6,154 nt of DNA, from assembly GCF_000966975.1 (NCBI RefSeq), contig NZ_JZWV01000103.1:1-6154 (forward strand), in the 5' to 3' direction. The notes beneath the pieces are model-generated. The model searched no databases and was not told the origin of the DNA. It was given only the letters and a program-made list of their open reading frames with translations. The translations under genes were made by a program, and so were the position numbers. Numbering within the stretch: position 1 is the first letter of the stretch; each line of letters begins with the position of its first letter. Source of the DNA: Streptomyces katrae (GTDB lineage: Bacteria > Actinomycetota > Actinomycetes > Streptomycetales > Streptomycetaceae). This document shows, piece after piece, positions 226 to 6,154 of the stretch.

Positions 226-933
226 ATGTCGCGATCCCCCCGCCCCACCGCCGCCGCGGCACCGGCCCTCGCGGCCCTTGCCGCCCTCGCCGCCCTCGCG
301 GGCTGCGCCGCACCCGGCGGGCTGGCCGCGGGGGAGCCCGTGGCCCCGGCGTCCCCGCAGCCCCAGCCGCAGGCCCTGTGGCCCGCCTGGGCCGACGACT
401 CCCCGAAGTCCCCCGGGGCGGCGACCGGCACCCGGCAGCCCCCGCCGGCACCGCTGGCGGACGCCCCCGAGGTGGGTGCCGGAGGGCTGACGGCGGTGAA
501 GGCGGCCGATGTCGTCAAGGCCGACCCGCGCATGCGGCTGTTCGCCGAGAAGGGGACCATCAACTCCCCCGGCCGGTCCGGGATCCGCCCGCCGGTCTAC
601 CTGGACCTCACGGGGGACGGGCAGCAGGAGCTGATCGTCGCCGCCGACACCGAGACCGGCCGCACCGCACTGACCGTGTACGCGGCCCGGGGCAAGCGGA
701 TCGTGCCCGTCCTGTTCACCCTCGGGCGGCGGATGGCCGCCGAGTCCCTGGGCCAGGACCTGCTGATCCGCACCGCCCCCGACGACGGCTCGGAGCAGGC
801 CGTCCGCTACCGCTGGGACGGAGAGCGGATGACCGTGGTCAACGAGGAGCGGCGCTACAACAAGACCCTCCCCGCCCCCTCCTCCGGCGGGTCCGCGCCG
901 GAAGCGGACCACGGCGCCGGGGGCGCCCGGTGA
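226..933 (+). CDS. Putative lipoprotein, likely partner of the downstream sensor kinase
   Basis: Encodes 235 residues. Residues 1-27 are a lipoprotein signal peptide: basic start (R3, R6), an Ala/Leu core built from AAL repeats, and lipobox LAGC with C27 as the lipidated cysteine. A Pro/Ala-rich linker (about 28-80) follows, then a globular part. The globular part contains DLTGDGQQE (127-135), an Asp/Gly calcium-loop-like motif seen in VCBS/FG-GAP-type repeats, and YRWDGERM near 195-202. The protein should sit on the outer face of the membrane. No clear Shine-Dalgarno precedes the ATG, but the signal peptide fixes this start to within a few codons. Its stop overlaps the kinase start by GTGA, so the two are translationally coupled. 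In the Streptomyces sigE locus a lipoprotein (CseA) tunes a coupled sensor kinase (CseC). A similar role is an inference here, since neither sigE nor a response regulator is present and I did not establish homology to CseA. Confidence 0.8.
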   Translation: MSRSPRPTAAAAPALAALAALAALAGCAAPGGLAAGEPVAPASPQPQPQALWPAWADDSPKSPGAATGTRQPPPAPLADAPEVGAGGLTAVKAADVVKADPRMRLFAEKGTINSPGRSGIRPPVYLDLTGDGQQELIVAADTETGRTALTVYAARGKRIVPVLFTLGRRMAAESLGQDLLIRTAPDDGSEQAVRYRWDGERMTVVNEERRYNKTLPAPSSGGSAPEADHGAGGAR

Positions 934-1469
934 GGCGGCTGCCGGCCCGCTGCCGGCGGCTGCTGCGGGCCCTCGGGCTGCGCTGGAAGATCGCCGCGCT
1001 GCTGGCGGCCGGCTGTTCGCTCGTCGCGGTCACCATCGGGGTCCTGATCTACGAGGCCCGGGTGCGCCAGGTGTCGGACGCGGCCCGCAAGGGCGCGACC
1101 GAGCAGCTGGTCCGCGTACGGCAGGTGTACGAGCTGACGGGCCGCCTCGACTACGACAAGGTGGGCGAGGCCGACGCCCGGCTCGACTGCCCCGAGGTGC
1201 CCCAGGAGCTGCGCGCGGCGGCCCTGGACGGCCTCCGCACCACCTACCTCGACCTCTCGGGTCCGGATCCGGCGGTGTGGGCGGCGCGGCCGGTGGGCGG
1301 CGGGCACGTGCTGTCGGTGCGGCGCTCCCTGGCCGGGGAACGGGCCGAGCTGGAGGAGCTGGACGCCCAGCTGGTCGCCTCCGGGACCGGGGTGGTGGCG
1401 CTGGCGGCGGTCGGCGGGGCCCTGATGGCGAGCCGGCTGAGCAAGGATCTGCGGTGGCGAGCCGGCTGA
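930..1469 (+). CDS. Sensor kinase, N-terminal half: two membrane helices and extracytoplasmic sensor
   Basis: Starts at GTG 930, whose last two bases begin the lipoprotein stop codon (GTGA overlap). It reads 179 residues before an early stop. An Arg-rich cytoplasmic start (residues 2-20) leads to helix 1 (about 20-41, WKIAALLAAG to GVLIY). An extracytoplasmic sensor of about 105 residues follows, rich in charged residues and with one cysteine in LDCPEVP, and then helix 2 (about 149-167, ending GGALMAS). Residues 166-175 are the start of the HAMP linker, and the last four (WRAG) are out-of-frame readthrough of repeat copy 2. The fragment could insert in the membrane and bind a ligand but has no kinase domain. 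The ligand is unknown, and the adjacent lipoprotein is a likely interaction partner. Confidence 0.7.
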   Translation: MRRLPARCRRLLRALGLRWKIAALLAAGCSLVAVTIGVLIYEARVRQVSDAARKGATEQLVRVRQVYELTGRLDYDKVGEADARLDCPEVPQELRAAALDGLRTTYLDLSGPDPAVWAARPVGGGHVLSVRRSLAGERAELEELDAQLVASGTGVVALAAVGGALMASRLSKDLRWRAG

Positions 1470-1483
1470 GCAAGGACCTGCGG
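1426..1483 (+). repeat. 29-base perfect-phase tandem duplication that breaks the kinase frame
   Basis: Copy 1 spans 1426-1454 and copy 2 spans 1455-1483, head to tail with no spacer. Both begin TGGCGAGCC and end CTGCGG. They differ at one position, T1448 versus C1477, which are synonymous Asp codons in the ancestral frame. As 29 is not a multiple of three, the second copy moves the frame by -1. The flanking bases differ (A1425 versus G1454), which fixes the unit length. The junction places a GTG (1454-1456) six bases after AAGGA (1443-1447), so the duplication itself supplies a possible internal start. Confidence 0.95.
1443..1456 (+). promoter_or_regulatory. Ribosome binding site and GTG start created at the duplication junction
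   Basis: AAGGA at 1443-1447 in copy 1 is followed by six bases and GTG at 1454-1456. G1454 comes from the end of copy 1 and TG from the start of copy 2. The GTG is in frame with the kinase half and lies 11 bases before the stop of the sensor half, so ribosomes ending there could restart. Copy 2 carries the same AAGGA but no start codon after it. The fit may be chance. Confidence 0.4.
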
Positions 1484-2245
1484 GCGGCGGCCGAGACGGC
1501 CCGGCGGATCAGCGCGGGCGACCTGGACGCCCGGATCGGGCCGTCCGGGGCCCCGGGCAGCCGCGACGAGGTGGCCGAACTGTCCTCGGCGGTCGACACG
1601 ATGGCGGCGAGCCTGCAGCGGCGGCTGGAGGCGGAGCAGCGGTTCACGGCGGACGTGGCGCACGAGCTGCGGACCCCGCTGACGGGACTGCACACGGCGG
1701 CCGAGCTGCTGCCCGCGGGGCGGCCGACGGAGCTGGTGCGGGACCGGGTCGCGGCCCTGCGGACGCTGACGGAGGACCTGCTGGAGGTGGCCCGGCTGGA
1801 CGCGAACCGGGAGGAGGCCCGGCTGGAGGCGCAGCCGCTGGGGCCCCTGGTGGTCTCGATCGTGCGGCGGTCGGGGGTGGCGGCCGAGGTGTCGGGCGCC
1901 GCGGAGCCGGAGGAGGGCGGCACGTGGGTGCGTACCGATGCCCGGCGGCTGGAGCGGATCCTGACGAACCTGCTGGTCAACGCCCGTCGGCACGGCCAGG
2001 GCCGGATTGCGGTGACGGTGTCCGGGGCCGAGGTGACCGTCCGGGACCAGGGGCCGGGTTTCCCGGAGAGCCTGCTGCGGGAGGGGCCGCAGCGGTTCAT
2101 GACCGGCGCGGCCGAGCGGGGCCAGGGCACGGGGCTGGGGCTGACGATCGCCTTCGGGCAGGCCCAGGTGATCGGCGCCGGGGTGCGCCTGTGGAACCCC
2201 GCCGACGGGGGCGCGGCGGCGACGGTGACCCTGCCGGAGGTCTGA
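1454..2245 (+). CDS. Sensor kinase, C-terminal half: HAMP, phospho-acceptor His and ATPase
   Basis: Read from GTG 1454 this gives 263 residues and no membrane helix. HAMP sequence covers about 1-50 (ARRISAGDLDARIG). The dimerisation/phospho-acceptor H-box is RFTADVAHELRTPLTG with His70. The HATPase domain carries the N-box (RILTNLLVNARRH, N172 and N176), the G1 box DQGPG (198-202), an F-box-like RFMTG and the G2 box GTGLGL (225-230). It ends in the usual TVTLPEV strand. All catalytic motifs are intact, so the fragment could autophosphorylate if expressed, but detached from the sensor it would be soluble and unregulated. The cognate response regulator is normally encoded next to such a kinase. 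None is visible, so its target is unknown. Confidence 0.72.
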   Translation: MASRLSKDLRAAAETARRISAGDLDARIGPSGAPGSRDEVAELSSAVDTMAASLQRRLEAEQRFTADVAHELRTPLTGLHTAAELLPAGRPTELVRDRVAALRTLTEDLLEVARLDANREEARLEAQPLGPLVVSIVRRSGVAAEVSGAAEPEEGGTWVRTDARRLERILTNLLVNARRHGQGRIAVTVSGAEVTVRDQGPGFPESLLREGPQRFMTGAAERGQGTGLGLTIAFGQAQVIGAGVRLWNPADGGAAATVTLPEV

Positions 2246-2309
2246 GCGGACCGGTTTTCACCCGGACGGGGTGGGGGTGCACGGATGGCCGCGCAGGGCC
2301 TCTGGCCTG

Positions 2310-2336
2310 GGCGGATGCCCTCCCCAGGGGCACGCC
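2310..2336 (+). terminator. Candidate terminator hairpin after the kinase gene
   Basis: GGCG (2310-2313) and TGCCC (2316-2320) pair with GGGCA (2328-2332) and CGCC (2333-2336), giving nine GC-rich pairs with a two-base bulge and a seven-base loop. It lies 65 bases after the kinase stop. No T-tract follows, which is common for actinomycete terminators but weakens the call. Confidence 0.4.
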
Positions 2337-2365
2337 GGCCGGGATCTGACGACGGGTCAGCAGGC

Positions 2366-2387
2366 GGCCGCCGGGCGGCCCGGTTTT
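2366..2387 (+). terminator. Hairpin followed by TTTT upstream of the surface protein gene
   Basis: Two mutually exclusive stems overlap: GGCCGC/GCGGCC (2366-2371 with 2375-2380) and CCGGG/CCCGG (2371-2375 with 2379-2383). The second runs straight into TTTT (2384-2387), an unusual T-run in this DNA. It may end transcription from the kinase unit, or act as a leader attenuator if the promoter of the 2424 gene lies upstream of it. Confidence 0.35.
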
Positions 2388-2393
2388 CCTCGA

Positions 2394-2417
2394 GACACGA
2401 CCCCGTGTCCCCTGGAG
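2394..2417 (+). promoter_or_regulatory. Leader hairpin and Shine-Dalgarno of the surface protein gene
   Basis: GACACG (2394-2399) and CGTGTC (2404-2409) form a six-pair stem with an ACCC loop, ending four bases before the Shine-Dalgarno GGAG (2414-2417). Six bases then lead to the ATG at 2424. The RBS spacing supports that start. The dyad could be an operator or a structure that changes access to the RBS. Confidence 0.4.
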
Positions 2418-2423
2418 TGACCC

Positions 2424-2969
2424 ATGCGCCGCAGGACCGCCCACGCGCTGACCGCCGCCGCGCTGACCGCCGGCGCCTTCGCCGGCCCGGTCGCGGGAGC
2501 GGTGGCCGCGGCGGACCTCGGCATGCCCCCCTTCGCGCCCGGGGACTTCGCCGTACTGGAGGTCTGGCCGAAGTCCGCCGTACCGGGCACCACGGTCACC
2601 GTGAACACCAAGGCCTGCGGGCCGGGCAGCCATGCCGAGGGCGATGCCACCACCGTGGGCGGGGGCCGGTTCAAGCTGACCCCGGGCACCCACAAGGAGG
2701 TCGTGGCCGGCCAGTTCCAGGTCGCCCGGGACATCCGCCCCGGCACGTACGGCATCGGCGCCACCTGCGCCGACGGCAAGTTCGCCACCGGCGACCTGGT
2801 CGTCACCGAGCACGGCCCCCAGGGGCACGTGCGCACCGGGGTGGGCGGTGGCACGACCACCACCGCCGCCGACCCGGCCAAGATCACGGCGGGAGCGGCA
2901 GTGCTGGCCGCGGCCGCCGTCGGCGGTACCTGGCTCCTGCGTCGCCGGGCGAGCGGCACGCGGAGCTGA
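2424..2969 (+). CDS. Secreted, C-terminally anchored small surface protein, likely sortase substrate
   Basis: Encodes 181 residues. A signal peptide (1-30: MRRR start, Ala-rich core, cleavage likely after AVAAA) precedes a compact domain of about 100 residues. The domain has two cysteines (C65 in TKACG, C115 in GATCADG) that could form a disulfide, and a PGTTVTV / RPGTYGIG pattern that suggests a beta-sandwich. A Thr/Gly-rich stretch (138-148) leads to a hydrophobic helix (153-172) and a terminal RRR (173-175). That arrangement of spacer, helix and basic tail is the sorting-signal layout. No LPxTG or LAxTG is present; the nearest candidate is HVRTGVGGG (135-143). A class F sortase follows 131 bases downstream, supporting the pairing. 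Similar small secreted proteins beside class F sortases occur in Streptomyces as far as I recall, with no established function. It could alternatively stay in the membrane by its helix alone. Confidence 0.82.
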   Translation: MRRRTAHALTAAALTAGAFAGPVAGAVAAADLGMPPFAPGDFAVLEVWPKSAVPGTTVTVNTKACGPGSHAEGDATTVGGGRFKLTPGTHKEVVAGQFQVARDIRPGTYGIGATCADGKFATGDLVVTEHGPQGHVRTGVGGGTTTTAADPAKITAGAAVLAAAAVGGTWLLRRRASGTRS

Positions 2970-2978
2970 CGGGCGCCC

Positions 2979-2998
2979 ACCGCGGCTGCGGCCGCGGT
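2979..2998 (+). terminator. Strong hairpin just after the surface protein gene
   Basis: ACCGCGGC (2979-2986) pairs perfectly with GCCGCGGT (2991-2998) around a TGCG loop, ten bases after the stop codon. This is an eight-pair, nearly all-GC stem without a T-tract, and is a likely terminator or mRNA 3' stabiliser. Confidence 0.5.
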
Positions 2999-3015
2999 CC
3001 GACCGGTACCGCCCC

Positions 3016-3063
3016 CCGTCGCCCGCCCCGCGAGGTCCCCCCGTTCGCGGGGCCGGGCGACGG
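3016..3063 (+). terminator. Long 18-pair hairpin between the surface protein and sortase genes
   Basis: The left arm 3016-3033 (CCGTCGCCCG then CCCCGCGA) pairs with the right arm 3045-3063 (TCGCGGGG, bulged C, CGGGCGACGG). All 18 pairs are Watson-Crick with one bulged base (3053) and an 11-base C-rich loop. It begins 46 bases after the surface gene stop and ends 22 bases before the sortase RBS. It is the strongest structure in the window. It may be a terminator, a partial terminator that sets the substrate-to-sortase ratio, or an RNA processing site. Confidence 0.55.
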
Positions 3064-3085
3064 CCACCGCTGTCAACGGCGAGAC

Positions 3086-3092
3086 AAGGGGG
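3086..3092 (+). promoter_or_regulatory. Shine-Dalgarno-like AAGGGGG for the sortase start
   Basis: AAGGGGG is followed by eight bases and ATG 3101. A competing start, ATG 3191, has AGGA at 3180-3183 with seven bases of spacing. The longer start is preferred because codons 3101-3190 keep G or C at nearly every third position. Confidence 0.45.
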
Positions 3093-3100
3093 TACGAGGC

Positions 3101-3820
3101 ATGGCCGGCTTCCCGGGATCCCGGGCCCTCCCCGCCCTCCGGCTCATCGCCCGGGGACACCACCGCCGAGCCCCCCGCCAGGACCACGGCATGCGTCCCG
3201 GCGCGCCGGGGCCCCGGGGGCGGGCCGGGCTGGTGGCGCTGGCCGCGTGCGTCGGCGTATGGCTCGTCAGCAGCGGTTCCGGCGAAACCGTACGGCCGCC
3301 GCTGCCCTCCCCCGCCGACGCCCTGAGCGCGCAGGCCCTCTACCCCGGGAGCATCGACCCGCTCCCCGGATCCCCGCCGACCCGGATCCGGATCCCGTCC
3401 ATCCACGTGGACGCCCCGCTCACCGGGCTCGGCCTCGAACGCGACGGCAGCCTGGAGGTGCCGCCTCCGGCCCGGGGCGACCTCGCGGGCTGGTACCGGG
3501 ACGGGACCGCCCCGGGCGCGACGGGCACCGCCGTGATCGCCGGCCACGTGGACAACGCGAGCGGCCCGGCCGTCTTCTACCACCTGGGCGCCCTGCACCG
3601 GGGCGCCTCGATCGAGGTCGCCCGCACGGACGGGCGTACGGCGGTGTTCACCGTCCACGCGGTCGAGGTGTACGACGCGAAGTCCTTCCCCGACCACCGC
3701 GTCTACGGCCCCTCACCGCGCGCCGAGCTGCGGGTGATCACCTGTGGCGGCGGTTTCTCCCCGCGCACCGGATATCAGGGCAACGTGGTCGTCTTCGCCC
3801 ATCTCACCGGGACGCACTGA
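3101..3820 (+). CDS. Class F sortase (cysteine transpeptidase)
   Basis: Encodes 239 residues. A basic N-terminus (1-42) and one membrane helix (about 43-59, LVALAACVGVWLVSS) place the catalytic domain outside the membrane. A Pro-rich linker precedes the sortase beta-barrel (about 92-236), opening RIRIPSIHVDAPLTGLGL. The catalytic residues are visible: H139 in AVIAGHVDN, C215 in RVITCGGGF and R222 in SPRTGYQGN. The short barrel, the TCGG box and the single N-terminal helix match class F, the actinobacterial group usually annotated by that name. Sortases cut a C-terminal sorting signal and join the protein to a cell-wall amine. The surface protein at 2424 is the obvious candidate substrate. A shorter start at ATG 3191 (209 residues) also keeps the helix and cannot be excluded. 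The 131-base gap with two hairpins suggests expression partly independent of the upstream gene. Confidence 0.88.
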   Translation: MAGFPGSRALPALRLIARGHHRRAPRQDHGMRPGAPGPRGRAGLVALAACVGVWLVSSGSGETVRPPLPSPADALSAQALYPGSIDPLPGSPPTRIRIPSIHVDAPLTGLGLERDGSLEVPPPARGDLAGWYRDGTAPGATGTAVIAGHVDNASGPAVFYHLGALHRGASIEVARTDGRTAVFTVHAVEVYDAKSFPDHRVYGPSPRAELRVITCGGGFSPRTGYQGNVVVFAHLTGTH

Positions 3821-5459: not shown

Positions 5460-6154
5460 ATGACCTCGGAACAGCGTGTGGTGGTGATCGGCGGCGGCCT
5501 GGCGGGCCTGCGGCTCGCCGCACGGCTGGGACCGGCCGCGGCGGTGACCGTCCTCGGCGAGGAGTCCCACGCCCCCTACAACCGGGTCCTGCTGGCGGAG
5601 GTGCTGGCCGGCCGGTACACCCCCGACGTGGCCGCGCTGCCGGCCCCCGGACCGGTGCTGCGGCGGGGGGTGCGGGCGGTACGGATCGACCGCGACGTCC
5701 GCCGGGTGCACTGCGACGACGGCACGGCGCCGGAGTACGACGTCCTCGTGCTGGCCACCGGCTCGAACCCGGTCCTGCCGCCGCTGCGCGGGCTGTTCCC
5801 GCCCGGCGGCGGGGAACTCCCCGAGGGGGTGCACGCGTTCCGCACCATGGACGACTGCCTCGCCCTGGACGCGGCCGTACGTCCGGGCGTACGCGCGGTG
5901 GTGATCGGCGGCGGCCTCCTCGGCGTCTCCGCGGCCCGTGCGCTGGCGGCCCGGGGGGCCCATGTGGTGCTCGCCCAGCAGGCGGAGCGGCTGATGGAGC
6001 GCCAGCTGGACGCCGATTCCGCTGCGCTGCTGCGGGAGCACCTCGCGGGGCTCGGCGTGGAGATCCACACCGAGTGCCGCGTCAGGGGCCTGACGACCAC
6101 GCCTGCGGCGGGGCTCACCACGGCCCCGCCGGCGTTCGAGGCGCTGGGGGTACC
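5460..6154 (+). CDS. NAD(P)/FAD-dependent oxidoreductase, NirB-like N-terminal part, cut by the right edge
   Basis: Reads 231 codons from ATG 5460 and continues beyond the window. It begins MTSEQRVVVIGGGLAG, the GxGxxG FAD-binding fold. SHAPYNRVLLAEVLAG (about residues 39-54) closely resembles the PYNRVLLS-VLAG segment of the NirB nitrite reductase large subunit and related rubredoxin-type reductases. DVLVLATGSNPVLPPL (about 98-113) is the ATG FAD motif. AVVIGGGLLGVSAARAL (about 144-160) is the second, NAD(P)H-binding, Rossmann motif, followed by ERLMERQLDADSAALL. The protein should pass electrons from NAD(P)H through FAD to an unseen partner. Full NirB would add iron-sulfur and siroheme domains downstream, while a stand-alone reductase would end near 400 residues; the cut prevents a decision. 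No Shine-Dalgarno precedes the ATG. It diverges from the transporter, and nitrite assimilation is the best guess at its role. Confidence 0.85.
   Translation, partial: MTSEQRVVVIGGGLAGLRLAARLGPAAAVTVLGEESHAPYNRVLLAEVLAGRYTPDVAALPAPGPVLRRGVRAVRIDRDVRRVHCDDGTAPEYDVLVLATGSNPVLPPLRGLFPPGGGELPEGVHAFRTMDDCLALDAAVRPGVRAVVIGGGLLGVSAARALAARGAHVVLAQQAERLMERQLDADSAALLREHLAGLGVEIHTECRVRGLTTTPAAGLTTAPPAFEALGV

What the first reader, a model, noticed from the sequence alone, without database searches (positions are those of the whole stretch)
1426..1483. A 29-base tandem duplication splits a histidine kinase at the membrane/HAMP junction
Two head-to-tail copies, 28/29 identical, move the frame by -1 exactly where the second membrane helix meets HAMP. 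Deleting one copy restores a single 428-residue kinase. The one difference between copies (T1448/C1477) is synonymous in the ancestral frame, which suggests either some age or that the copies were once both read in frame. Adjacent long direct repeats can be lost by slippage, so the gene could switch on and off in a population. An assembly or sequencing error is the main dull alternative.
Basis: seen in the sequence. Interest (0 to 1): 0.75.

Follow-up and report, generated by a model that had tools for sequence, protein, structure and literature searches.

The report
False 29-base duplication from genome assembly
The 29-base repeat that cuts a Streptomyces sensor-kinase gene in two is likely an assembly error rather than a genetic switch: about 0.96 million other bases of the same draft genome hold eight more frame-breaking repeats of this kind, and a similar amount of sequence from related genomes holds none.

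Summary
In detail: 1426-1454 and 1455-1483 are head-to-tail copies, 28/29 identical, and they move the frame of a histidine kinase between its second membrane helix and HAMP. In 23 of 23 related loci the junction is single-copy and open.

The cause is very probably not biology. The window is one whole contig of an 8.05-Mb draft in 1873 contigs. In 962,297 other readable bases of that draft, 8 of 31 tandem duplications (at least 12 nt, length not a multiple of three) lie between open coding flanks whose phase shifts by exactly the duplication's length; they are 14-31 nt long. Related genomes give 0 of 37 in 988,073 bases. Genes hit include the only monomeric isocitrate dehydrogenase found and an ABC ATPase at its nucleotide-binding loop. 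Two of four single-N positions have exact 7-8 nt repeats on either side, as expected where contigs were butted together with their overlap unmerged.

Best explanation: two contigs whose overlap was too short to be recognised were concatenated, so it was written twice; T1448 is probably an error near a contig end. No reads or second assembly could be examined. A true duplication or slippage switch is possible but improbable.

The parts
1426..1454 (+). first copy of the 29-nt duplication, probably the end of the left assembly piece; carries T1448 (GAT)
   Evidence: assignment to an assembly piece is inference
1455..1483 (+). second copy, 28/29 identical, probably the start of the right assembly piece; carries C1477 (GAC)
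   Evidence: relatives have GAC in 13, GAT in 3 and Glu codons in 7 of 23
930..1469 (+). left part of the histidine kinase (N-terminal membrane and sensor region) with a frameshifted tail and a stop inside copy 2
   Evidence: CseC profile 4-162 of 424, 86.3 bits; phase
1427..2245 (+). right frame of the kinase: HAMP (about 1454-1618), HisKA (about 1634-1804), HATPase_c (about 1937-2239)
   Evidence: CseC profile 149-401 of 424, 274 bits
226..933 (+). lipoprotein-like gene just upstream, overlapping the kinase start; context
   Evidence: no Pfam or NCBIfam hit; homologue upstream of the kinase in 24 of 24 loci compared, two of which are the same contig; 'lipoprotein' judged by eye

Best explanation
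The 29-nt tandem duplication is likely an assembly artefact: two neighbouring assembly pieces that overlap by 29 bases were probably joined end to end without merging the overlap, so it was written twice and an intact histidine-kinase gene looks frameshifted. Shown here: the duplication itself; single-copy open junctions in 23 of 23 related loci; eight more frame-shifting duplications of 14-31 nt in other places of the same draft against none in the control sequence; and two single-N joins with an unmerged 7-8 nt repeat on either side. Inferred: that position 1454/1455 is such a join; that the assembler could not recognise overlaps shorter than roughly 32 nt (no lesion above 31 nt was found although lengths up to 400 were scanned); that T1448 is a base error near a contig end; and that the strain carries an intact kinase.
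For: The window is a whole 6154-nt contig of a draft of 1873 contigs. Of tandem duplications of at least 12 nt and not a multiple of three, 8 of 31 in 962,297 readable bases of the draft (window excluded) have stop-free coding flanks on one strand with a phase shift equal to the length, against 0 of 37 in 988,073 control bases; Fisher p = 0.0011, per-base binomial p = 0.0035. Leaving out six contigs picked because an ABC domain looked split: 7 of 29, p = 0.0020 and 0.0059 (all). With periods from 8 nt: 14 of 161 in the draft, window included, against 0 of 165 in 925,502 control bases. Both halves of the same gene are recognised by profile for 6 of these 8: isocitrate dehydrogenase (TIGR00178 positions 5-669 and 661-741 of 744), an ABC ATPase, a flavin monooxygenase, a cellulase, DUF2797 and a LysR regulator. 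The isocitrate dehydrogenase pieces are the only matches to that family in the genome. Two of four single-N positions have exact 7- and 8-nt repeats on either side (chance of such a repeat at a random position 0.0009), and there the coding phase shifts by the repeat length plus the N. Relatives: 23 of 23 open and single-copy. Passages in PMC3158087 describe flanking contigs whose overlap is too short to be joined; [quoted passage not shown]
Against: No raw reads, coverage, assembler name or second assembly of the species was available. A scan for any same-strand frame switch, duplicated or not, showed no excess in this draft (31 events in 968,451 bases, against 46 in 925,502 control bases); that scan is unspecific, since it also counts gene boundaries, and it missed the window itself. 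For 2 of the 8 lesions (C79 and C1732) only one half has a profile match. GAT occurs at the mismatch codon in 3 of 23 relatives, so T1448 need not be an error. A control draft of similar fragmentation gave only 62,571 readable bases. Neither paper describes exactly this artefact.
Confidence: 0.93

Rival explanations
1. A real, recent tandem duplication in the sequenced isolate has inactivated this kinase, which is under way to becoming a pseudogene.
For: The duplication is real in the deposited sequence; single tandem duplications of this size do arise in bacteria (general knowledge); the copies differ at one base; GAT occurs in 3 of 23 relatives.
Against: It would need eight further independent gene disruptions per about 0.96 Mb in the same strain, including its only monomeric isocitrate dehydrogenase, against none in 0.99 Mb of controls.
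Confidence: 0.05
2. The repeat is a slippage-driven on/off switch of the kinase.
For: Adjacent near-identical 29-nt copies could recombine or slip back to one copy (general knowledge).
Against: 23 of 23 related loci have no tandem copy, so no switch element is conserved. The same kind of lesion is spread over functionally unrelated genes of this draft. No read mixture could be examined.
Confidence: 0.015
3. The gene is really split into two working proteins, or the ribosome is programmed to shift frame at the repeat.
For: The right frame is open upstream of the duplication, with possible GTG starts.
Against: In GC-rich DNA such open frames are common by chance; no relative among the 23 has a split. 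No slippery site or structure was looked for.
Confidence: 0.005

Closest known systems
Unmerged contig overlap ('negative gap') in short-read assemblies (PMC3158087 and PMC3528712; passages seen)
   Same: Neighbouring contigs share an overlap too short for the assembler to use; lengths found here stop at 31 nt, as a k-mer limit would give.
   Different: Those papers describe closing such gaps; neither passage shows the overlap left as a tandem duplication that breaks genes, and the assembler used here is unknown.
False segmental duplication by mis-assembly (PMC2864568; search listing and start of abstract only)
   Same: A duplication that exists only in the assembly.
   Different: There the cause is two divergent haplotypes in diploid genomes and the duplications are large; here it is a haploid bacterium and tens of bases.
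CseC sensor kinase of Streptomyces (NCBIfam NF041732)
   Same: Best NCBIfam family for both halves.
   Different: The halves score 86.3 and 274 bits against a cut-off of 700; no response-regulator gene lies next to it in the window or was recognised around the relative L104. It is a paralogue, apparently an orphan kinase.

Membership tests
assembly duplication from an unmerged contig overlap | recurs at unrelated places in the same assembly and is absent from other genomes | tested here: met
   8 of 31 against 0 of 37 non-3n tandem duplications
assembly duplication from an unmerged contig overlap | length bounded by the overlap the assembler can detect | tested here: met
   14-31 nt for the eight and 29 for the window; none longer in scans up to 400 nt
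assembly duplication from an unmerged contig overlap | the assembly shows joins with the overlap left on both sides | tested here: met
   2 of 4 single-N positions
assembly duplication from an unmerged contig overlap | reads show one copy | not testable with these tools
   no reads held
slipped-strand phase-variable gene | repeat present at the same place, with varying copy number, in relatives | tested here: not met
   no tandem copy in 23 of 23 related loci
slipped-strand phase-variable gene | mixture of copy numbers within one culture | not testable with these tools
   no reads held
CseC equivalog (NF041732) | score over the curated cut-off of 700 bits | tested here: inconclusive
   halves scanned apart: 86.3 and 274 bits; a split protein cannot reach the cut-off fairly, and intact relatives were not scanned
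CseC equivalog (NF041732) | cseB-type response regulator next to it (recalled) | tested here: not met
   none among the window genes scanned; none recognised by eye among ORFs of L104 5164-9891

The most novel reading that the evidence does not exclude
The duplications are real: the strain has a mutator-like process that lays down 14-31 nt tandem duplications throughout its chromosome, so that many genes, this sensor kinase and its isocitrate dehydrogenase among them, are reversibly broken and a population explores on/off combinations by losing one copy.
Probability: 0.03. Interest if true: 0.8.

Novelty: not a real feature. Interest (0 to 1): 0.08.

Why it matters
As biology it probably does not matter: the kinase is likely intact in the cell. 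As a caution it does. By extrapolation from 8 in 0.96 Mb, some tens of genes in this public draft may be falsely frameshifted, and a reader looking for pseudogenes or phase-variable genes would be misled. The signature (tandem duplications no longer than about 31 nt, frame shifted by their own length, many genes, absent from relatives) is easy to screen for.

Tried and rejected
Slippage switch: rejected on the spread of such lesions over unrelated genes and the single-copy relatives.

A general scan for same-strand frame switches did not separate this draft from controls (31 against 46 events); many hits are probably ordinary gene boundaries, and it missed the window. I therefore used the narrower test on tandem duplications.

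First, stricter phase test: 3 frame-shifting duplications in the draft, window included, against 0 in control. Looser test: 13 of 32, window included, against 0 of 37. One search splits the looser set without the window into 8 stop-free sites and 4 with a stop in a flank (C200, C37, C1792, C227), which may be gene boundaries and are not counted. A further 20-nt duplication on C1458 (at 9055) coincides with a frame switch but did not pass and is not counted.

Sampling: 100 stretches of this genome were taken; 23 short contigs read wholly N and count as no sequence. Contigs were taken partly by arbitrary number, partly because a histidine-kinase or ABC-transporter match showed them to be long, six of them because an ABC domain looked split; C79 was taken because it holds a kinase paralogue. 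Two stretches of C10 overlap by 1001 bases. Controls were 20 stretches from nine relatives, 80 named loci around kinase relatives (mostly Streptomyces, so repeats of one neighbourhood; one contig occurs in both sets) and 20 stretches of the draft G017, mostly masked.

Papers: search listings, which found none, gave no paper that I used further except for passages of PMC3528712; led to passages of PMC3158087. No paper was read whole.

Full report
Observation. The window carries TGGCGAGCCGGCTGAGCAAGGA(T/C)CTGCGG twice, at 1426-1454 and 1455-1483, 28 of 29 bases identical. The left frame of a histidine kinase starts near 930 and runs into a stop at 1467-1469. The right frame carries HAMP, HisKA and HATPase_c. 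Both halves fit one kinase profile, NF041732 CseC, at positions 4-162 and 149-401 of 424.

Relatives. In a search of 150 genomes of the genus, own genome included, 28 have a match at E <= 1e-80; ten others are at least 71% identical to the right half. A scan of named genomes gave 80 loci, the best from Streptomyces flavotricini, S. roseus and others. The genus is taken as Streptomyces because contig G071:C82, called same genus, has the same length, 182,942, as a named S. roseus contig. In 23 of 23 loci compared, 570 nt around the membrane/HAMP junction are open in one frame and hold no tandem duplication. The window is therefore the exception.

What kind of exception. The window is contig 306, complete, of a draft of 8,047,724 bases in 1873 contigs. 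If the repeat were an assembly fault, similar faults should recur elsewhere in the draft. I took 100 stretches, 962,297 readable bases, and looked for tandem duplications of at least 12 nt whose length is not a multiple of three. For each I asked whether the coding phase, from the GC content of codon positions, shifts across it on the same strand by exactly that length, with no stop in either flank. The result was 8 of 31, against 0 of 37 in 988,073 bases of relatives (Fisher p = 0.0011). Six contigs had been picked because an ABC domain looked split; without them it is 7 of 29 (p = 0.0020). With lengths from 8 nt, 14 of 161, window included, against 0 of 165.

The eight lesions are 14, 14, 14, 16, 19, 19, 28 and 31 nt long. 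For six, profiles recognise both sides as parts of one protein: monomeric isocitrate dehydrogenase on C1458, an ABC transporter ATPase on C1183 (duplicated in the GKST loop, a Walker A motif by recall), a flavin monooxygenase on C682, a cellulase on C575, a DUF2797 protein on C130 and a LysR regulator on C1868. For the other two, a PAP2 phosphatase on C79 and a SpoIIE-type regulator on C1732, only one side has a match. The isocitrate dehydrogenase pieces are the only matches of that family in the genome; other types of isocitrate dehydrogenase were not sought. A strain with its central metabolism cut in this way is less likely than a faulty assembly.

Direct traces of joins. The readable sample has four single N. 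Two have the same 7 or 8 bases on either side, and at both the coding phase changes by the repeat plus the N (shift 2 for 7+1, none for 8+1). A repeat of 7 or more exact bases occurs at 0.09% of random positions. These look like joins whose overlap was never merged. At the other two there is no repeat; one of them also shows a phase change.

Mechanism. Passages of two papers describe the situation: flanking contigs that overlap by too little to be linked (PMC3158087), and contig overlaps shorter than the k-mer for Velvet and Allpath (PMC3528712). If such contigs are concatenated, the overlap is written twice, and no such duplication should exceed the detectable overlap; none here exceeds 31 nt in scans up to 400. 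Two of the eight (C79, 31 nt; C1868, 28 nt) have one mismatch, as the window has; base errors at thinly covered contig ends would give this. In the window T1448 is the less usual base: GAC 65 against GAT 9 in the window's genes and 13 against 3 in relatives. That is suggestive only.

Results against this reading. A general frame-switch scan shows no excess in this draft (31 against 46 events). It is dominated by other causes and misses the window, but it does not support a badly broken assembly in general. No reads, coverage values or conspecific assembly were seen. The control draft of similar fragmentation was small (62,571 bases), so I cannot say how common the fault is among drafts.

Verdict. 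Likely an assembly artefact (0.93), possibly a true inactivating duplication (0.05); a switch or a programmed frameshift is improbable. The kinase itself looks like an ordinary CseC-like paralogue without a neighbouring response regulator, in a neighbourhood conserved in relatives.

Noticed in passing
window 226-3820: A neighbourhood conserved in relatives: a lipoprotein-like gene (homologue in 24 of 24 loci), the CseC-like kinase (24 of 24), a GVDTG-sorting-domain protein (22 of 24) and a class F sortase (16 of 24; some loci are cut short and two loci are the same contig). An orphan sensor kinase beside a sortase and its likely substrate might be a cell-surface signalling unit.
   Followed up: partly
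L202 6451-6488 (G000 contig C1458): The only monomeric isocitrate dehydrogenase found in the genome is split by an exact 19-nt tandem duplication.
   Followed up: yes
L217 2786-2813 (G000 contig C1183): An ABC transporter ATPase is split by an exact 14-nt duplication in its GKST loop.
   Followed up: yes
L216 about 1456-1460 (G000 contig C1410): An ABC transporter domain changes frame with no obvious tandem duplication, by eye a small indel: the draft may hold other error types.
   Followed up: partly
L228 6018 (G000 contig C256): A single N in a coding region with a phase change but no flanking repeat.
   Followed up: no
window 5460-6154: Start of a NirB-like nitrite reductase gene, cut off by the contig end.
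   Followed up: no
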